In this document: positions 10,962 to 29,895 of the stretch, piece by piece | Layout of the letters: the number at the start of each line of letters is the position of its first letter | How positions within the stretch are numbered: position 1 is the first letter of the stretch | Origin: an uncultured Eubacteriales bacterium | GTDB taxonomy: Bacteria; Bacillota; Clostridia; Peptostreptococcales; Anaerovoracaceae | NCBI GenBank assembly: GCA_900315485.1 | Contig: OMZI01000016.1 | Coordinates: 1-52,848 of the forward strand | DNA length: 52,848 bases | Reading direction: 5' to 3' | The notes under the pieces: generated by a model | Database searches by the model: none | What the model was told of the DNA's origin: nothing | What the model saw: the letters and a program-made list of their open reading frames with translations, nothing else | Made by a program: the position numbers and the translations under genes

Positions 10962-12302
10962 CTAGAGATCTGCTGCCTCAGCTTCGATCTCAGCTGCTTC
11001 GCTGCTGTCCTCAGCGCCATCATACTCATTGGTGAGATGGAACTTGTCGAGCAGGTACATGACCAGTCCGAGTGCCATGCCTGTAAGTGCAGCCAGGCTC
11101 ATTCCGGAGAGCTGAGCTGAACCAAGCTTGATAGCGATACCTGAGAGACCGACAACGAATACTACGGAAGTCATTGCAAGGTTGCGAGGCTTGGAGTAGT
11201 CGATCTTGGCATCTACCATCAGACGGATACCGCTTGCTCCGATCATTCCGTAAAGCAGGAAGCTGACGCCGCCCATTACAGGACCAGGGATGGTCTGGAT
11301 GAGAGCCGATGCCTTGCCGATGAATGAAAGAAGGATCGAGAATGCAGCTGCGCCGCCGATGACCCATACGCTGTATACCTTGGTGATGGCCATGACACCG
11401 ATGTTCTCACCGTAAGTCGTAGTAGGGCATGAACCGCAGAATCCGGAGAGTGCTGTCGAGAAACCGTCAGCGAACATGGATCTGTGGAGTCCCGGATCCT
11501 TCAGAAGATCCTTACCTACGACCTCGGATGTAACGACCTGATGTCCGATGTGCTCGGAAACAACTACGAGAGTTGCAGGAATGATGATCAGGATAGCCTG
11601 CAGGCTCCACTGCGGTGTCTGGAATGCAGGAAGCTCGAATACAGGAGACTGGCCAACAGACGAGAAGTCAACAAGTCCGAATGCAAGTGCAAGGCAGTAT
11701 CCTGCAATGATCGAGATCAGGATGGCGATGGCGCTTGCAAATCCTCTGTACAGTACTCCGCCGAATACAGCAAGGAGAAGTGTGACCAGGAAAACGGTGA
11801 GGACCTTAGGGTCAAGATTCTCTACCATGGTTCCGTCAGAATTCAGGATGCCGCCTGTCTGTGCTGCGTTGCCTGCGAGCTCAAGACCGATGAGAGCGAC
11901 AACAGGTCCCATAGCAGCCGGAGGGAGGATGGCGTCGATCCACTTGGTCCCTACGAACTTGATCAGAATTGCGATCGCGCACATCAGGAGACCGGTCACA
12001 ACGAATCCGCCGAGTGCATATCTGTATCCGAGACCTTCAGTTCCGATGACAAGAAGTGCAGGGGAGATGAAGGCGAATGAGGAACCGAGATATGCAGGAG
12101 CTTTGCCCTTGGTGCAGATAATGAAGATGAATGTTCCGATGCCGTTCATGAGAAGGGCGATGGAAGGATTGATCCCGAGGATGTACGGTACAAGCACTGA
12201 TGCGCTGAACATAGCGAAAGTGTGCTGGATCGAAAGCGGGATACCTTTGCTCAAAGGGACTCTTTCCTGGATCCCAATGATTTTTCTCTGTTGCTTAGCC
12301 AT
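10962..12302 (-). CDS. uraA: Uracil permease (NCS2 family)
   Basis: 446-residue nucleobase:cation symporter-2 carrier with about 14 membrane segments. The start VPLSKGIPLSIQHTFAMFSASVLVPYILG is the classic UraA/PyrP N-terminus; the QHT histidine-containing segment and later PTTTYGENIGVMAITKVYS are substrate-site motifs of uracil transporters. The C-terminus is acidic. The frame could begin five codons earlier, but AAAGAGGTAATT directly before ATG 12302 supports this start. It is a single gene with its own promoter and terminator; no pyrimidine gene is adjacent. Xanthine transport is less likely given the motif set. Confidence 0.9.
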   Translation of the reverse strand: MAKQQRKIIGIQERVPLSKGIPLSIQHTFAMFSASVLVPYILGINPSIALLMNGIGTFIFIICTKGKAPAYLGSSFAFISPALLVIGTEGLGYRYALGGFVVTGLLMCAIAILIKFVGTKWIDAILPPAAMGPVVALIGLELAGNAAQTGGILNSDGTMVENLDPKVLTVFLVTLLLAVFGGVLYRGFASAIAILISIIAGYCLALAFGLVDFSSVGQSPVFELPAFQTPQWSLQAILIIIPATLVVVSEHIGHQVVTSEVVGKDLLKDPGLHRSMFADGFSTALSGFCGSCPTTTYGENIGVMAITKVYSVWVIGGAAAFSILLSFIGKASALIQTIPGPVMGGVSFLLYGMIGASGIRLMVDAKIDYSKPRNLAMTSVVFVVGLSGIAIKLGSAQLSGMSLAALTGMALGLVMYLLDKFHLTNEYDGAEDSSEAAEIEAEAADL

Positions 12303-12341
12303 AATTACCTCTTTCATTTAAACTATAAAATTTCCACGAAC

Positions 12342-12370
12342 ATTATACTGTCGCGCAGAGAAGGCCACAA
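12342..12370 (-). promoter_or_regulatory. Promoter of the uracil permease gene
   Basis: On the minus strand TTGTGG, 17 bases, TATAAT (plus-strand 12365-12370 and 12342-12347), 40 bases before the start codon. Confidence 0.6.
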
Positions 12371-12513
12371 CGATTTGAGGATAGTCATTTTGTATTTTTT
12401 GAGATAAAGCGTGAAAAACTATCAAAAAGCCGAACGTGCAATAATTTGAAGAAAGAGTTGTTCGCACTAAAAAACGGGCAAAAAGAGCCCGCAGAAGTGG
12501 TATGGGGAATGAT

Positions 12514-12541
12514 TGACTCACTTGCATATTGTGGTAATATT
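12514..12541 (+). promoter_or_regulatory. Putative selD promoter
   Basis: TTGACT, 16 bases, TAATAT. A start 6-8 bases later would fall at 12547-12549, that is on the selD ATG itself, leaving no leader. Confidence 0.5.
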
Positions 12542-12546
12542 TACTC

Positions 12547-13779
12547 ATGAGTAAGACAATAGATGATGAAAAATTAAGAGAAGCGAAGGCTAAGCTTGCG
12601 TGCCATATTGAACCGCCGAAGGGGAGCCCTTATGCAGAAATGCTCGCTCAGAGCGGGCTTGATTCTGATGCCCCGGAAGAGACTGTATCATCATGCGGAA
12701 CGGCGGCCCCTGTACAGGGTGAGAAGATACGTCTGACAGAGATGACCAGTGCCGGCGGATGAGGCGCCAAAATAGGACCGGGTGTCCTGTCAGATATACT
12801 TTCGGGTCTGCCTAAGATCAGCGACCCGAGGATCCTTGTGGGATTTGAAAGCAGCGACGATGCGTGCGTGTACAAGGTGTCTGATGATGTTGCACTGATC
12901 AACACGGTGGACTTCTTCCCGCCTATAGTTGACGATCCGTACATGTTCGGACAGATAGCTGCTGCAAACTCGCTCAGCGATGTCTATGCTATGGGCGGAG
13001 AGCCGAAGCTCGCCATGAACCTGCTGACATTCCCTAATAATAAGCTGCCGCTTGATGTGGTCAAAGCTATCCTCGAGGGCGGAAATGACAAGGTCAATGA
13101 AGCGGGTGCAACGATCGTCGGCGGGCACAGCATCGACGACAAGGAGCCGAAGTACGGACTGTCTGTGACCGGTTTTGCACATCCTGATGATATCCTCAGC
13201 AACAGCGCATGTGAGGGGGATCTGCTGGTCATAACCAAGAAGATCGGAACAGGTATTCTGACTACAGCAGCCAAGGTAGACCTCCTGACTGATGAAGAGA
13301 ATGCTGAGATGGAAGCAACGATGGCATTCCTGAACAGGTATGCATGGGAGGCCATGAAGGGCGTGAAGGTCGACGGATGTACAGATATCACCGGGTTCGG
13401 ACTCATAGGTCATGCTGCCGAGATGGCACGTGCGGGAAATGTCACGCTCGAGCTGTACAGCCATAAGGTGCCGGTATTCCCTAAAGCCATAGAGATGGCG
13501 ACGATGGGCATAATACCTGCCGGTGCATACAGAAACAGGGACTACACAGAAGGCGAAGTCATGGAGTTCCTCTCCAGGGACCCGATGCGCGATGCGATGC
13601 TGAGAGCAAGACTCGACTGCCTCTACGATCCGCAGTCATCAGGCGGACTTCTGATAGCCGTCAAGGAAAAGGAACTGCCGAGGCTGATAGAGCAGCTCGG
13701 TGAGAAGGGCTGCGAGACTGATGTGATCGGCGCATTCAAGCAGAAGAAGGGAAAATTCTCTATAGAGATCCACGATTAG
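12547..13779 (+). CDS. selD: Selenide, water dikinase; selenoprotein with in-frame UGA (Sec72)
   Basis: SelD makes selenophosphate from selenide and ATP. The frame is interrupted only by TGA at 12760-12762, inside TSAGG-U-GAKIGPGVL, exactly where SelD has its catalytic Cys or Sec; the reading frame continues unbroken for 338 more codons. A SECIS-like hairpin follows, and selA, selB and tRNA-Sec are in the same window, so the TGA is read as selenocysteine, giving 410 residues. Other family features are ESSDDACVY and the Gly-rich GGHSIDDKEPKYG region. There are about 55 extra residues before the usual N-terminus. No Shine-Dalgarno precedes ATG 12547; ATG 12640 after GGGGAG is an alternative start. 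Confidence 0.93.
12760..12790 (+). promoter_or_regulatory. Selenocysteine UGA and bacterial SECIS hairpin in selD
   Basis: UGA at 12760-12762 followed by stem AGGAC / GTCCT (12774-12778, 12784-12788) with a CGGGU loop. The loop starts 17 bases after the UGA and carries G residues, as bacterial SECIS elements recognised by SelB do. The stem is short, so pairing of flanking bases may add to it. Confidence 0.75.
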
Positions 13780-13799
13780 CATAATCAGGCAAAATAATA

Positions 13800-13833
13800 A
13801 CAGCATGGAGCCGGAGGCTTCCATGCTGTTTTT
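13800..13833. terminator. Terminator between convergent selD and LysR gene
   Basis: Stem ACAGCATGGA / TCCATGCTGT (13800-13809, 13820-13829) followed by T5. Confidence 0.85.
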
Positions 13834-13849
13834 CTGTATCCTATTCCGC

Positions 13850-14734
13850 TCAGTTCTGCAGTCTGGACCTTACGTATTCCATGAAGGCCTCTGCAGCAGG
13901 GGACAGAGAACTGCTTCTGAGAGTGATCATGTAGAATGAACGCTCTTCGTCAAAATCCTCTATCTGGATTATCCTTGTGCGGCTTCCGATAGTTGATGCG
14001 ACTTTTTCTGAAATGATCGCCACGCCAAGTCCGGCTTCTACGGCACGGATCACTGAATCCATATCGTCGAAAAGAGCGGCGACATCAAAGACTTCCTTAT
14101 CGTAGCCCATGGCAACAGCCGCATCCTCAAACGACTTGCGTGTAGCTGAGCCTGTCTCGCGCCAGATGAAAGGATAGGTAACAGCCTCAGACATGGTGAT
14201 CCTGTCCGGGATATCTGAAGAGGCCGGTGCTATCATTACGACCTTGTCGGTAAAGACCTTGACCGATTCAATGCCTCCGCCCCCGGGTTCATCTCCGATG
14301 AATCCTATCTCACCGCGGCGCTCTGTGATGTTATCGATAACAGTCTGTGTATCCGAAGAAGAAACATAATACTGGATGCCGCTATGCTCCATCCGGAAAC
14401 CTGCAAGAAGATCCGGAAGGAATGTGACTGCCGGAATCGAAGAGCTCTGGATCTCAAGGATACCTTCAACTCTGTCGCTGCTGTTATCGAGCGCGTCGAA
14501 AGCCTGGGCTCTCGCATTGATCATCTCGACTGCATATTTATAGAACTTGGCGCCCTGAGGGGTCATTTCCACAGCACGGCTCTTGCGGTCCAGGAGCTTG
14601 ACTCCGAGTTCCTTCTCAAGATTGCGTATATGTGTGCTGATCGTGGGCTGGGTGAAGAAAGTCGCGTCTGCGGCCTTGCTGAAGCTCTTGTATCTTACTA
14701 CGTTTACGAAAGCTTCTATCTGTTTGAAATCCAT
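13850..14734 (-). CDS. LysR-family regulator, selenium-metabolism-associated type
   Basis: 294 residues. The N-terminal winged helix-turn-helix (FVNVVRYKSFSKAADATFFTQPTISTHIRNLEKELG is represented by residues 9-43) is followed by a type 2 periplasmic-binding-like effector domain from about residue 90. The sequence and its place, convergent with selD, match the LysR subgroup found beside Sec genes in clostridia. It probably senses a small selenium- or sulfur-related effector, but target and ligand are not visible. A CysB-like sulfur role is the main alternative. Its stop is 70 bases from the selD stop with a shared terminator. Confidence 0.82.
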   Translation of the reverse strand: MDFKQIEAFVNVVRYKSFSKAADATFFTQPTISTHIRNLEKELGVKLLDRKSRAVEMTPQGAKFYKYAVEMINARAQAFDALDNSSDRVEGILEIQSSSIPAVTFLPDLLAGFRMEHSGIQYYVSSSDTQTVIDNITERRGEIGFIGDEPGGGGIESVKVFTDKVVMIAPASSDIPDRITMSEAVTYPFIWRETGSATRKSFEDAAVAMGYDKEVFDVAALFDDMDSVIRAVEAGLGVAIISEKVASTIGSRTRIIQIEDFDEERSFYMITLRSSSLSPAAEAFMEYVRSRLQN

Positions 14735-14747
14735 TAAAAAACTCCTC

Positions 14748-15185
14748 CTAATCCATACCCAGGAGCTGTACTTTGGTCACTCCTGGAATATTGCTGATAT
14801 CTCTGATCATATCGTCCAGAGCACCGGCATCCTCACCAAGCTCGAGTGTGATAACTACGTTGGCCTTGGCGTCTACGGGAGGATTCTGAGTGATTGTCCA
14901 GACACTGTAATCGTAGCCGGAGATGACTCCGATAACGGTTGAAAGGATACCTACCTTGTGGCTGATCATCATGCTGATGATAGCGTGACGGCCCATTGAG
15001 ACTGTGCTTATGTTTCTCACCAGGTCTTTGTACTTATAGTAAGTACTGCGGGATATCCCGACCATTTTTACTGCTTCACTGACATCTCTTGCCTGGCCGT
15101 CATCCAGCAGTTCTCTGGCCTGGACGACCTTTTCGAAATACGGAGGCAGTAATGCTTTGTCTACGATCAAGTATTTGCTTTGCAT
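14748..15185 (-). CDS. ACT-domain HTH protein (PheB/ThrR-like threonine regulator)
   Basis: 145 residues. The N-terminus LIVDKALLPPYFEKVVQA leads into a helix-turn-helix (VGISRSTYYKYKD, residues 42-54), then a C-terminal ACT domain (from about residue 72) that should bind an amino acid. This layout is that of PheB (UPF0735), whose Bacillus homologue ThrR represses threonine biosynthesis. Its position directly after thrC and close to hom supports the same role here. The frame extends 17 codons upstream, but ATG 15185 with AAAGG nearby gives the conserved N-terminus. Function as a repressor is inferred from the family and the neighbours. Confidence 0.82.
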   Translation of the reverse strand: MQSKYLIVDKALLPPYFEKVVQARELLDDGQARDVSEAVKMVGISRSTYYKYKDLVRNISTVSMGRHAIISMMISHKVGILSTVIGVISGYDYSVWTITQNPPVDAKANVVITLELGEDAGALDDMIRDISNIPGVTKVQLLGMD

Positions 15186-15232
15186 AGTAATGATAACCTT
15201 TATTATTAGATTTTTCAATAATGGACAGGCGG

Positions 15233-15285
15233 GCACCTGTTAACAATTGTTTAATGCGATATGTATCGCAGATTAACTCAGGTGC
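15233..15285. repeat. Nested hairpin between thrC and the ACT-domain gene
   Basis: Outer stem GCACCTG / CAGGTGC (15233-15239, 15279-15285), continued by TTAA/TTAA pairing, and inner stem TGCGAT / ATCGCA (15255-15260, 15265-15270). No T run, so more likely an RNA-processing or stability element than a terminator. Confidence 0.55.
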
Positions 15286-15292
15286 GCCGGTC

Positions 15293-16774
15293 TTATTCTG
15301 ATTTTCCGATCACATAGTCCTTCATGTCAGAGATCTCAATGACATCCCCGTGCCTTACCTCGCGCGAGAATATCCCGGCAAGGCCTTCAGGTACAGGCGC
15401 GCCTGTGACCTCATGTACTCTGTTCATGTTGGCTTCGTCACTTTCCGAGAGCTCCTCGCCGAGAGCTTCAAGGACTGCGCGTGAGAACTTGTACGGGGAA
15501 GCCGTCGACAGGACGACTGATGCTGCACCGTGCTCAGATGCTCCTGATGCTGCATGTCCTGCATCCAGTTTCTCCATGCAGGCCCACGCTATGGATGTGT
15601 GAGTGTCCATCAGATAGTGCTCTCTGTTGAAAACGTCCCTGATAGCTGCTGCGCCTTCATCATCATCAGCGCAGACTCCGGCGAATACCGAAGTGATCTC
15701 AGCGAGCTCCTCAGCAGTGATTTGATACTCACCGTTCTCCGAAAGAGCCTTCATATACTCAGCTGTGTGCTCTGCACCGCATACGTAGTACAGCAGTCTT
15801 TCGAGGTTGCTTGAAACGAGAATATCCATGGAAGGAGATGTCGTCTTGTGGAACGGCCTCTTTCTGTTATAGTGACCTGTCTCAAGGAACTCAGTCAGTA
15901 CATCATTGCGGTTGGATGCGCATACGAGTCTTCCGACAGGCAGTCCCATCTTCAGGGCAAAATATCCGGCCATGATGTCGCCGAAGTTGCCGGTAGGTAC
16001 GATGTAGTCGACCTTGTCTCCGTCGCTGATCTCACCTGAAGCGAGAAGCTGGCTGTATGCGGCAAAATAGTATACGACCTGCGGAACAAGTCTTCCTATA
16101 TTTATGGAATTTGCACTTGAAAGAGAAACTCCTTCCACAGGATGCGGGATCTCACGGAAGAGGGCCTTGACTCCTGTCTGTGCATCATCGAAGTTGCCGC
16201 GTATAGCACATGCGCATGTATTTGAGCCCGGAGCTGTTACCATCTGGAGACGCTGTGTCTCGGATACTCCGCCGTGAGGGTAGAAGACTACGATCCTTGT
16301 TCCCGGGACATCGCTGAATCCGCAGAGTGCAGCGCTGCCCGTGTCACCTGATGTTGCAGTGAGGATCATGATCTCATCCCTGAAGTCGTTCATGTCACGT
16401 GCTGCAGTCAGCAGGTTAGGAAGTGCTGAAAGAGCTACATCCTTGAATGCTGAGGTAGGACCGTGATACAGCTCGAGAACGTGGCTGCCGCCTACTTTTA
16501 CTACAGGTGTTATCTCAGGTGCCGAGAACTTTCCCTCGTAGCTTCTTGTGACGAGCTCTTCTATAAGAGCATCGCCGTAGTCAGGGAAGAAGATGTTCCA
16601 TACGGCCCTGGCCATTCCGCGGAAATCCTTACTTATAATATCGTGGTAGTCACATCTGATATCCTCAAGATGCTCAGGTATATACAGACCTCCGTCAGGA
16701 GCCTGACCGCTGAGTATGGCGCGGCTTGAACTGACCTTGTGGGACGGATTTCTTGTGCTTATGTAGTTGATCAT
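15293..16774 (-). CDS. thrC: Threonine synthase
   Basis: 493 residues, the long class of PLP-dependent threonine synthase, which converts O-phosphohomoserine to threonine. Starts MINYISTRNPSHKVSSSRAI, a typical N-terminus; the PLP-lysine motif is HGPTSAFKDVAL, and the phosphate-binding loop is TATSGDTGSAAL. It is transcribed away from hom, with 243 bases between, and is followed by the ACT-domain regulator gene on the same strand. The reaction before it, homoserine kinase (thrB), is not encoded in the window. Confidence 0.94.
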   Translation of the reverse strand: MINYISTRNPSHKVSSSRAILSGQAPDGGLYIPEHLEDIRCDYHDIISKDFRGMARAVWNIFFPDYGDALIEELVTRSYEGKFSAPEITPVVKVGGSHVLELYHGPTSAFKDVALSALPNLLTAARDMNDFRDEIMILTATSGDTGSAALCGFSDVPGTRIVVFYPHGGVSETQRLQMVTAPGSNTCACAIRGNFDDAQTGVKALFREIPHPVEGVSLSSANSINIGRLVPQVVYYFAAYSQLLASGEISDGDKVDYIVPTGNFGDIMAGYFALKMGLPVGRLVCASNRNDVLTEFLETGHYNRKRPFHKTTSPSMDILVSSNLERLLYYVCGAEHTAEYMKALSENGEYQITAEELAEITSVFAGVCADDDEGAAAIRDVFNREHYLMDTHTSIAWACMEKLDAGHAASGASEHGAASVVLSTASPYKFSRAVLEALGEELSESDEANMNRVHEVTGAPVPEGLAGIFSREVRHGDVIEISDMKDYVIGKSE

Positions 16775-26228: not shown

Positions 26229-26326
26229 GGGGGTAGATAGGTGCTGGTGTGCCTCGCGGTCTTCAAAACCGTTTGCAGGGGGTTAGTAGCCTCCCGGGTG
26301 GGTTCGATTCCCACATACTCCCGCCA
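26229..26326 (+). tRNA. selC: tRNA-Sec (anticodon UCA)
   Basis: 98 bases including encoded CCA. Anticodon loop CTTCAAA (26261-26267) with TCA at 26263-26265. It has the Sec hallmarks: long acceptor stem (GGGGGTA pairs with TACTCCC, G discriminator), a six-pair D stem with a four-base loop (AGGTGC-TGGT-GTGCCT), and a long variable arm (GGGGG / CCTCC). T arm GTGGG-TTCGATT-CCCAC. It lies just before selA and is the carrier on which SelA makes selenocysteine. Confidence 0.95.
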
Positions 26327-26398: not shown

Positions 26399-27913
26399 AT
26401 GAATAAGAATGAATTGCTGAGGAGACTCCCTAAGATCGATGAAGTTCTGAAAGAGGGGTCTCTTGTTGTTTTATCTGAAGAAAAGGGATCGCTTCTCGTA
26501 ACCGAGGCCGTGCGCGGCGTCATAGCGGATATGAGAAAGAACATCCTTGACATAGATGAGGAGAGGCTGGCAGTGCTGGATTCCGCGGCAGACGGAGCCC
26601 TGCACGGAAGCAATGAGAGCAAGAGTGCTCTGGCTTCCTTCTTCAGCCAGTTCGAGCCTGCCAATGTGGCAGCCAGGGCTGCTGCAAGGCTCGCTGAAGA
26701 CGAATCCCTCAATCTGTATCCTGTGGTAAATGCCACCGGAACGATCCTGCACACCAATCTCGGAAGAGCACCGCTGTGCGCTGACGCTGTAGAGAATGTG
26801 GCTAAGGTGTCCCGCAGCTACTCTGATCTTGAGTACAATGTGGCGAAGGGTGCCCGCGGCTCCAGACATGATCTTGTCGGCAACCTGATAGCGGAGCTTA
26901 CAGGAGCTGAGGACGCGATGGTCGTAAACAACAACGCTGCCGCAACGATGATAGTTCTTGCATCCATGGGAGCAGGCAAAGAGATAATCGTCAGCAGAAG
27001 CGAGCTCGTTGAGATCGGCGGAGCCTTCAGGATCCCTGACATCATGTCGCAGTCGGGCGCATTCCTTCAGGAGGTCGGCACCAGCAACAAGACCAAGCCG
27101 TCCGATTATGAGAAGGCGATAATGACTAAGGAAATGCTCGCTGAAGAGCCGTGGAAGAACGACCCGAGAGGGACCAGGAGATTTGAGACCGGAGCGCTCA
27201 TGAAGGTGCACAAGTCCAACTATGACATCCTCGGATTCACCGAAGAGGCGAGCCTTGAGGATCTCGTAGAGATAGGAAAGAAGCATGATCTGCCTGTGAT
27301 CTTCGATATGGGCAACGGCCTGATGCTGGACATGTCGGAATACGGACTGAGAGAGCCTAACATCCCGGCTTCACTGGCTACGGGAATAGACGTCATGCTG
27401 TTCAGCGGAGACAAGCTCCTCGGAGGACCGCAGGCCGGCATCATAGTAGGAAAGAAGAAATATATAAGCAGGATGAAGAAGCATCCTCTGGCGCGTGCAA
27501 TGAGAGTCGACAAGATGACTTTTGCCGCACTCGAGGCGACACTGGCCAAGTATAAGGACCCTAAGATCGCGCTCAGAGACATCCCTGTGCTGAACATGAT
27601 CTCGGCATCCGGGGATGAGATGAAGGCCAAAGCGAAGAGGCTCGCTGATGAGATCGCCAAGGCGAACAGCGGACTGGAACTTGAGATCGTTGCCGTTAAG
27701 GATCAGATCGGCGGCGGCTCGGCACCTATGGTGCGCCTGCCCGGATGGGCAGTTTCTGTCCGCGACGGCAGCAGATCGGCGGACAGCATCGAGCGCCGCC
27801 TGCGCAAGGGCAAAGTGCCTGTCGTAGCAAGGATACATGATGACATGCTGCTCCTGTGCGTACGCACGGTATTTGAAGACGAATTCGGCCTTATAGCTGA
27901 CGCGCTGAGATAG
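26399..27913 (+). CDS. selA: L-seryl-tRNA(Sec) selenium transferase
   Basis: 504 residues, somewhat longer than the usual 460-480. PLP enzyme converting seryl-tRNA-Sec to selenocysteyl-tRNA-Sec with selenophosphate. Visible motifs are VNATGTILHTNLGRAPL, VNNNAAA, the cofactor region IFDMGNGLMLD and the PLP lysine in FSGDKLLGGPQAG (Lys339). CCGGAGG precedes ATG 26399. It follows tRNA-Sec and precedes selB by 44 bases. Confidence 0.96.
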   Translation: MNKNELLRRLPKIDEVLKEGSLVVLSEEKGSLLVTEAVRGVIADMRKNILDIDEERLAVLDSAADGALHGSNESKSALASFFSQFEPANVAARAAARLAEDESLNLYPVVNATGTILHTNLGRAPLCADAVENVAKVSRSYSDLEYNVAKGARGSRHDLVGNLIAELTGAEDAMVVNNNAAATMIVLASMGAGKEIIVSRSELVEIGGAFRIPDIMSQSGAFLQEVGTSNKTKPSDYEKAIMTKEMLAEEPWKNDPRGTRRFETGALMKVHKSNYDILGFTEEASLEDLVEIGKKHDLPVIFDMGNGLMLDMSEYGLREPNIPASLATGIDVMLFSGDKLLGGPQAGIIVGKKKYISRMKKHPLARAMRVDKMTFAALEATLAKYKDPKIALRDIPVLNMISASGDEMKAKAKRLADEIAKANSGLELEIVAVKDQIGGGSAPMVRLPGWAVSVRDGSRSADSIERRLRKGKVPVVARIHDDMLLLCVRTVFEDEFGLIADALR

Positions 27914-27957
27914 TGCGCAGTCATAACTGCCGGTCATCACAGAAGATAAAAGGATAT

Positions 27958-29895
27958 ATGAAGAACATTATTATAGGTACTGCCGGGCACGTAGACCACG
28001 GCAAGACAACTCTGATAAAAGCACTCTCCGGCATCGACACCGACCGCCTGATGGAGGAGAAGAAGCGCGGCATCACGATCGAACTCGGTTTTGCCCACAT
28101 TCCCAATGACGCAGGATACAACATCGGCGTCATCGATGTTCCGGGACACGAGAAGTTCATCAAGAACATGCTCGCCGGCATAGGCGGCATAGATTTTGTG
28201 CTGTTCGTAGTCGCTGCGGACGAGGGCATCATGCCTCAGACGAGGGAGCACTTTGAGATCCTGAACGCTCTCGGCATTGACGACGGTATCATCGCCGTGA
28301 CCAAGACGGACATGGTCGAAGAGGAGTGGATGGAGCTTCTTCTTGATGAGGTAAATGAGTACTTCAAGGGGACCTTCCTTGAGGGCAAGCCTGTCATTCC
28401 GGTCAGCGCGGCAACAGGAGAGAATATCGAAGTCCTGAGAGAAGCCATCGTTGAGAAGTGCGACAGGGAGAACAAGCGCCGCGAGGAGAAGGAACTCTTC
28501 AGACTGCCTGTGGACAGGGTGTTCACGATGTCGGGCTTCGGTACGGTCGTGACAGGAACTCTTGTCGACGGCACTGTCAGAGTCGGAGATGAGATCGTCA
28601 TATACCCGCACGCCGGTGAGGGCCAGGGCGGTACAGACGGACGCAAAGTCAAGGTGCGCGGCATCGAGACTTACGGCAAAGAGACTGATATGGCTCTAGC
28701 GGGACAGAGGACAGCGATCAACCTCGCAGCCATAGGCAAGGAGGATGTGTCGAGAGGCGATGTGCTCGCTGCTAAGGATGCTGTAACAGTAACATCCATG
28801 ATCGATGTAAAGCTCAGGATGTTCAGCTCGTCTGACCGTATAGTGCTGAACAACAGCCGCGTGCATCTGTATTCGGGAGCTGCCGAAGTGCTTGCCAAGG
28901 TCATTCTCCTTGACAGGGACGCTCTGTCGGCGGGCGAGGAATGCTATGCCCAGCTGAGGCTCGAGGAGCCGATGGCTCTGAGGCGCGGGGACAAATTCAT
29001 AGTAAGATTCTATTCACCGATAATAACCGTCGGAGGCGGTACTGTACTGGATACTCTGCCGCTCAAGCATAAGAGAAACCGTGAGGAAGTGCTCGCCGGC
29101 ATGGAGATCCTTGCTGGCGGAAGCACTGAGGATATAATCGCAGCCAAGTCGGGTGAGCACAGATTCGTAAGGCAGGAAGAGCTCGCTCATGAGTTGGGAC
29201 TCCTCCCTGACGAGATGGAGAAGATCACAGCCGGGATGACTGCGGATGAGGGCGGAAACTGCCCGCTCGTAAGACTCCCTGACAGGACTCTCCTGAGCAG
29301 GGCAAAATACGAAAAGATGAAGTCGGGGCTCGAGGATATCATCAACGTATATCACGATGCGAATCCTCTTGCAGACGGTATTCCGAGACAGGAACTTCTC
29401 TCAAGGCTGAGGGAAGCATGGCACACCGATGATGACAAACTCATTCAGGGAGCTGTGAAGTATCTCATGGATAACGGAGTCATCGAAGATCACGGCAAGT
29501 CGATAGCACTCAGCGGATTCAGGATCGAGTATACTCAGGAGCAGCTGGCTCTGAAGAACCGCATAGCAAAGATGTATGCAGAGGCCGGTCTTGAGATGAT
29601 CAGAACTGAGGATGTGATGGCTCTTGACAGGAACAAGGGTGTTATAAATGCTATACTCTCGGATCTGACTGCTGAAGGCTGCATCGTCAAGGTCAATCCG
29701 TCATATTACATCTCAGCGGATGCCTGGGATGAAGTCAACAGATGCGTCAAGTCATTCGAGGGAGAATTCACGCTGGCTGAGTTCAGAGACAGGATAGGCA
29801 CATCGCGTAAGTATGCTGCCGAGTTCCTCCCGGCTCTGGATAAGGCGGGCATTACAGTATTCAACGGTACGACCCGTACCGTTGTAAGAAAGTAG
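27958..29895 (+). CDS. selB: Selenocysteine-specific elongation factor
   Basis: 645 residues. GTPase that delivers Sec-tRNA to UGA codons and binds the SECIS hairpin. G1 [14 protein letters not shown]3 [12 protein letters not shown]4 TKTD are all present in the EF-Tu-like N-terminal half; the C-terminal 270 residues are the winged-helix repeats that bind SECIS RNA. A GTG at 27913 is in frame, but AAAAGGA just before ATG 27958 fixes the start. Together with selA it forms the core Sec operon. Confidence 0.96.

What the first reader, a model, noticed from the sequence alone, without database searches (positions are those of the whole stretch)
12547..13779. selD is a UGA-recoded selenoprotein
The sequence shows one frame split only by TGA at 12760, at the catalytic Cys/Sec position of SelD (TSAGG-U-GAKIGP), followed by an AGGAC/GTCCT hairpin with a G-rich loop. 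The same window encodes selA, selB and tRNA-Sec. Selenophosphate synthetase with Sec at this position is established in other organisms; standard gene callers will split this gene in two.
Basis: partly seen in the sequence, partly recalled or inferred. Interest (0 to 1): 0.7.

Follow-up and report, generated by a model that had tools for sequence, protein, structure and literature searches.

The report
SelD selenoprotein with Sec at UGA
A gut bacterium related to Mogibacterium appears to make its selenium-activating enzyme SelD with the rare amino acid selenocysteine read from a UGA stop codon, a known arrangement, but its read-through signal sits at a different place from that of most relatives compared here and the enzyme carries an unusual extra tail.

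Summary
The finding is right. One 410-codon selD frame (12547-13779) is broken only by TGA 12760-12762, which aligns with residue 17, the catalytic Cys, of E. coli SelD. In 110 loci (own included) that codon is TGA in 103, TGC in 5, TGT in 2. The genome has selA, selB, tRNA-Sec and at least four other selenoprotein genes. One clade member (L056) has TGC, and its assembly shows no selA, selB or tRNA-Sec above cut-off. Sec-containing SelD is long known. The hairpin rests on conservation and synonymous constraint, not covariation or stability. Real, ordinary at its core, modestly new around it.

The parts
12547..13779 (+). selD coding sequence, 410 residues with U72, stop TAG
   Evidence: TIGR00476 E 1.3e-114 and NF002098 over cut-off; SelD fold
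12760..12762 (+). TGA codon 72, selenocysteine
   Evidence: aligns with residue 17 of E. coli SelD chain 3u0o_A; TGA in 103 of 110 loci, Cys codon in 7
12772..12790 (+). SECIS hairpin: arms 12772-12778 and 12784-12790, apical loop CGGGT 12779-12783, 16 nt after the UGA
   Evidence: single-sequence stability not unusual
12547..12723 (+). N-terminal tail, residues 1-59; predicted helix 7-17, motif A13-P24 (AKAKLACHIEPP), then variable linker
26229..26326 (+). tRNA-Sec (selC), anticodon TCA
26399..27913 (+). selA
   Evidence: TIGR00474 530.1 bits, cut-off 267.9
27913..29895 (+). selB
   Evidence: TIGR00475 345.1 bits, cut-off 242.25
13850..14734 (-). LysR regulator of the selenium-metabolism-associated family, convergent with selD
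   Evidence: NF040786 311.4 bits, cut-off 250; a similar gene found on 32 of 41 clade loci, whose flanks are short in part

Best explanation
selD encodes selenophosphate synthetase whose catalytic residue is selenocysteine. Ribosomes reach UGA 12760; [quoted passage not shown] The full protein turns selenide and ATP into selenophosphate, which SelA uses to make Sec-tRNA-Sec, including the Sec needed for more SelD. Shown by comparison: homology, position, Sec/Cys exchange, presence of the machinery, conservation of the element. Inferred from knowledge of the family: read-through itself, its efficiency, and enzymatic activity.
For: Family and fold: TIGR00476 1.3e-114; Foldseek to E. coli and Aquifex SelD, TM by target 0.88-0.93. 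Site: U72 pairs with chain residue 17 of 3u0o. Sec/Cys exchange: 103 TGA, 5 TGC, 2 TGT of 110. Natural control: L056, nested in the clade (beside L052, SH-aLRT 98 in a quick tree) and with uraA, LysR and thrC as neighbours, has TGC; its assembly has no selB over cut-off, no selA match, no tRNA-Sec over cut-off and no GrdB (three Sec-selD clade genomes also lack GrdB), and its hairpin core is weaker (-1.4 against -4.9 kcal/mol in L052). SECIS: 38 of 38 distinct clade sequences have a model-fitting hairpin at or below -3 kcal/mol, against a mean of 9.9 (maximum 16) in 40 synonymous-codon permutations; helix cells paired 95.1% against 31-45% when slid; RNAalifold finds the same hairpin unprompted. 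It meets the published model (G in the first two loop nt, 16-37 nt from UGA; passage of PMC13188914). Other selenoproteins in this genome: GrdA, two GrdB-type, PrdB.
Against: No compensatory double change in the clade's hairpin (0 pairs), and its pairing is no better than column shuffles because the columns hardly vary (500 of 500 as high). Single-sequence z-score +0.59. At or below -8 kcal/mol none of the 38 has a hairpin while the permutations give 1.1 on average. The minimum-energy fold holds the hairpin in 35 of 40 sequences from the UGA on, but in 32, 28 and 27 of 40 when folded from +3, +9 and +12. G130 has TGA selD and selB but no tRNA-Sec at E 1e-9; G131 has TGA selD but no selB over cut-off. 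No expression or protein data.
Confidence: 0.96

Rival explanations
1. The TGA is a true stop or a sequencing error: selD is a pseudogene or restarts at GTG 12838 as a shorter protein.
For: A 313-codon ORF from GTG 12838 is listed mechanically.
Against: TGA at the same codon in 103 of 110 loci from many assemblies. Residues between U72 and the GTG are strongly conserved (G71, U/C72, K75, L81 and L85 invariant in 46 proteins), and a restart at 12838 would leave them out.
Confidence: 0.01
2. UGA is reassigned genome-wide (to Trp or Gly), so the codon is not Sec.
For: The frame is open under such codes.
Against: UGA ends 3 of 20 family-supported window genes; the alternatives seen at the site are Cys codons only; selA, selB and tRNA-Sec are present.
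Confidence: 0.005
3. Sec is inserted, but the signal read by SelB is another structure downstream, the 12772-12790 hairpin being a by-product of codon preference.
For: No covariation in the clade, stability not above shuffles, hairpin absent from the minimum-energy fold in 5 to 13 of 40 sequences.
Against: Synonymous variability is lowest just here (CCG 39 of 39, ATA 33 of 33, GTC 37 of 39); synonymous-codon permutations give such a hairpin far less often; the distal hairpin of other selD genes is absent (39.7% of cells paired, shuffles 39.5%); an unprompted consensus fold finds this one.
Confidence: 0.06

Closest known systems
Sec-containing selenophosphate synthetase (SelD-Sec) of bacteria
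   Same: UGA/Sec at the catalytic position of SelD, bacterial SECIS just downstream, Sec machinery in the genome. PMC4561486 (section 4 read) reports Sec in 19% of the SelD genes found in 223 prokaryotic genomes, always at this position.
   Different: SECIS apical loop at 16 nt instead of the 32-33 nt found in 52 of the 63 other Sec-selD genes compared here; N-terminal tail.
SelD with N-terminal fusions (Ndh-SelD, NifS-SelD)
   Same: Addition on the N-terminal side of SelD (PMC4561486 section 4; PMC2398784 passages).
   Different: Those are enzyme domains and, by PMC4561486, all but one are SelD-Cys; here a short predicted helix, a Cys motif and a variable linker on SelD-Sec, with no domain hit at E 0.001.
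Sec-to-Cys conversions, some with remnant SECIS (PMC1794560, passages)
   Same: L056 reads as a Sec-to-Cys conversion nested in the clade, with a weakened hairpin. That paper counts three such events in SelD.
   Different: In 11 of that paper's cases the organism still decoded Sec; in L056's assembly selA, selB and tRNA-Sec are not found above cut-off.

Membership tests
SelD, selenide water dikinase | Equivalog model above curated cut-off | tested here: met
   TIGR00476 382.6 bits against 125; NF002098 338.9 against 299; a third model, NF010705, stays below its cut-off (170.9 against 291)
SelD, selenide water dikinase | SelD fold | tested here: met
   Foldseek 2yye_A E 3.3e-37, 3u0o_A TM by target 0.92; model mean pLDDT 87.9
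SelD, selenide water dikinase | Selenophosphate synthesis activity | not testable with these tools
   no assay
Sec-containing SelD | In-frame UGA at the catalytic Cys position with Sec/Cys exchange among homologues | tested here: met
Sec-containing SelD | selA, selB and tRNA-Sec in the genome | tested here: met
Bacterial SECIS | Stem-loop after UGA, G in the first two nt of a small apical loop, loop 16-37 nt from UGA | tested here: met
   loop CGGGT at 16 nt, the lower bound; model from a passage of PMC13188914
Bacterial SECIS | Compensatory covariation of the stem within the clade (supportive, not part of the published definition) | tested here: not met
   0 pairs with both sides changed among 35 sequences; the arms barely vary
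Bacterial SECIS | Binding by SelB and read-through | not testable with these tools
   no assay

The most novel reading that the evidence does not exclude
In selD the read-through signal has been rebuilt at a new place in the same coding sequence (apical loop at 16, 20 or 32-33 nt in different lineages), while GrdB in clade and non-clade genomes keeps its signal at 18 nt; in the Mogibacterium clade this came with a Cys-bearing N-terminal tail that acts as a selenium-handing or docking arm next to the catalytic Sec, and that is also the free 71-residue product made when selenium runs short and ribosomes stop at the UGA.
Probability: 0.1. Interest if true: 0.55.

Novelty: new member of a known kind. 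Interest (0 to 1): 0.3.

Why it matters
It fixes the annotation of a gene that mechanical ORF listing cuts in two, in a clade seen in many gut and rumen assemblies. It also gives a clean case for asking how a recoding signal moves inside a coding sequence under protein constraint: the same UGA, the same gene, GrdB signals unchanged, but the selD hairpin at another distance. The tail is a defined, testable feature bearing on how SelD receives selenium, which PMC13188914 (passage) calls incompletely elucidated.

Tried and rejected
Rejected: pseudogene or sequencing error, genome-wide UGA reassignment. The idea that the tail replaces the selenium-associated protein YedF was tested and failed: YedF is over cut-off in 38 of 40 genomes, tailed and tailless alike (misses: G119, none; G131, below cut-off). 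A second copy of the tail in the own genome was not found (next hit E 0.17). The idea that the clade moved its SECIS elements in general failed: the best hairpin of GrdB-type genes sits at 18 nt in 24 of 24 read, 11 from clade and 13 from other genomes (further GrdB matches gave no locus and were not read). PrdB did not fit the G-in-loop model (no hairpin at L113, L143, L145, L146; one at 29 nt at L147), and at L141, L142 and L144 my pattern found no site; GrdA fits only weakly or not at all. Formate dehydrogenase (TIGR01591) gave no match in the own genome. An in-frame TAG and a second TGA flagged in two relatives (G057, G035) lie outside the SelD protein.

Limits of the counts. They lean to close relatives and hold some copies (L003 = L057, L004 = L059). 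SelD matches without a locus were not read, G035 excepted. One search used 35 of the 41 clade loci and 43 of the 52 loci of the 32-33 nt group (plus-strand loci with distinct sequence, TGA only). The tail motif was picked with a pattern that contains Cys, so Cys in 31 of 31 is circular; unselected positions around it (Ala at -6 in 30 of 30 with four codons, Pro at +4 in 29 of 31) are the evidence. Registers come from the best-scoring hairpin of a simple scan of my own. The tree is a quick one without bootstrap.

Full report
What is there. The selD frame runs from ATG 12547 to TAG 13777-13779 and is interrupted once, by TGA 12760-12762; reading TGA as Sec gives 410 residues with U72. Two NCBIfam selD models hit above cut-off, and the predicted structure (mean pLDDT 87.9) matches solved SelD enzymes best. 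In the alignment to E. coli SelD (3u0o) U72 falls on chain residue 17, a Cys, which from general knowledge is the catalytic cysteine. Only one SelD is found in the 2.52 Mb, 86% complete assembly, and a 99% complete relative in three contigs (G060) also has a single, UGA-containing match, so the enzyme appears to be needed for its own synthesis; such self-dependence is known for other Sec-SelD organisms (recalled).

Sec, not stop. Of 110 loci, own included, 103 have TGA, 5 TGC and 2 TGT at this codon, and from codon 72 on the frame stays open for 315-342 codons (the shortest, L061, is cut by its contig end). TGA is the stop of 3 of 20 family-supported genes of the window. The window holds tRNA-Sec, selA and selB. 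The genome further encodes GrdA, two GrdB-type proteins and PrdB, each with an in-frame TGA (three of the four named over cut-off, L111 by PF07355 only).

A natural control. L056 lies inside the clade (with L052, SH-aLRT 98), keeps uraA, LysR and thrC around selD, and has TGC. Its genome G133 shows no selB above cut-off, no selA match, no tRNA-Sec above cut-off (best 35.1 bits against 47) and no GrdB (but three clade genomes with TGA selD, G123, G124 and G139, have no GrdB match either). The 5-bp hairpin core is worth -1.4 kcal/mol against -4.9 in L052 and -4.6 in the window. Completeness of G133 is not told, so the absences are a reading of 1.6 Mb of assembly. Of the 40 genomes, 38 have selB over cut-off; besides G133 the miss is G131, which has TGA selD, tRNA-Sec and a partial selA just below cut-off. 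G130 has TGA and selB but no tRNA-Sec at E 1e-9. Incomplete assembly is the simplest reason for both.

The SECIS. The published model asks for a G in the first two positions of a small apical loop 16-37 nt from the UGA for most elements (passage of PMC13188914). In the window the loop CGGGT begins 16 nt after the UGA, closed by AUAGGAC/GUCCUGU. All 40 Sec members of the clade (38 distinct) have their best hairpin at 16 nt. Of the 63 other Sec-selD genes, 46 have it at 33, 6 at 32, 8 at 20 (one of them very weak), 2 at 16 and 1 nowhere. For 43 sequences of the 32-33 nt group the stem covaries (score 0.446 against 0.186 shuffled, 0 of 500 as high; 55 cells with both sides changed against 21; the number of such pairs, 3, is not above shuffles). 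That helix does not exist in the clade (39.7% of cells paired, shuffles 39.5%), and the 16-nt helix does not exist in the other group (50.5%, shuffles 49.8%). In the clade itself the arms are almost invariant: 95.1% of cells paired against 31-45% slid, with no double change and no excess over column shuffles. Synonymous variability is the lowest of the gene exactly here, and permuting synonymous codons within each gene makes such hairpins rare. Against: stability is not above shuffles, no clade hairpin reaches -8 kcal/mol, and minimum-energy folds hold the hairpin in 27 to 35 of 40 sequences depending on the 5' end. The clade is one side of a starred branch (41 rows, SH-aLRT 100); the deeper branches are weak, so which register is older is not settled. 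GrdB-type genes have their best hairpin at 18 nt in 24 of 24 read, so the shift belongs to selD, not to SelB's reach in general.

The tail. In 31 of 41 clade loci a tail of 28-82 residues precedes U72 and carries an A-K-E-K-L-A-C-[HK]-I-E-P-P-like sequence (selected with a pattern including the Cys) followed by a linker of variable length and make-up; in other SelD frames the nearest start lies about 12-20 residues before the site (by eye). Neighbouring unselected codons vary synonymously while the residue stays, so the tail is translated and under selection. Of the other 10 loci, with short tails, 9 have a Cys before the core and one (L061) has none. AlphaFold gives a helix at 7-17 at moderate confidence and a low-confidence linker. 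No Pfam or NCBIfam domain covers it at E 0.001 and no second copy is seen in the genome. What it does is open; docking or handing over selenium is a guess.

What is known. PMC4561486 (section 4 read; passages) reports Sec in 19% of SelD genes found in 223 prokaryotic genomes, always at the same position, and N-terminal fusions that are SelD-Cys with one exception. PMC1794560 (passages) tables 38 Sec-SelD, three Sec-to-Cys events in SelD, and remnant SECIS-like structures in FdhA and a HesB-like protein. PMC2398784 (passages) describes Ndh-SelD fusions and CxxU sites; here the site is AGGU, without that Cys. For a SECIS that differs in place between selD lineages, or for this tail, my searches (listings) and the passages that I saw of seven papers showed nothing; most subscription papers are not in that library, and the original bacterial SECIS model paper was not among those listed.

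Judgement. The claim is confirmed and the core is well-known biology. The SECIS register and the tail make it a somewhat unusual member.

Noticed in passing
L186:611-708 (own genome C2), window 26229-26326: A second tRNA-Sec gene away from selA/selB in the own genome, one base different within the tRNA; two genes of 68 bits or more in 6 of 28 genomes examined (G000, G131, G137, G119, G127, G129), all six from the clade (22 of the 28). In L186 it lies beside an ORF that I read, from recall, as cysteine-desulfidase-like. Multiple tRNA-Sec genes in some Clostridia are in print (PMC5330540, passages).
   Followed up: partly
L189 (G132:C29, beside selA): The tRNA next to selA in L055's genome scores only 34.8 bits as tRNA-Sec and ARAGORN does not call it: perhaps an unusual or degraded tRNA-Sec.
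   Followed up: no
L113 (minus strand), L143, L145, L146: PrdB-type genes of this clade have a shared downstream stem CTCTGCA...TGCAGAG whose loop ACAATCG lacks the early G of the SECIS model.
   Followed up: no
window 10962-16774: A selenium-associated LysR gene is convergent with selD; on the 41 clade loci similar uraA, LysR and thrC genes are found on 29, 32 and 26, while selA (6) or selB (3) lies upstream of selD in some, Mogibacterium timidum, M. pumilum and Crickella among them, partly with LysR as well.
   Followed up: partly
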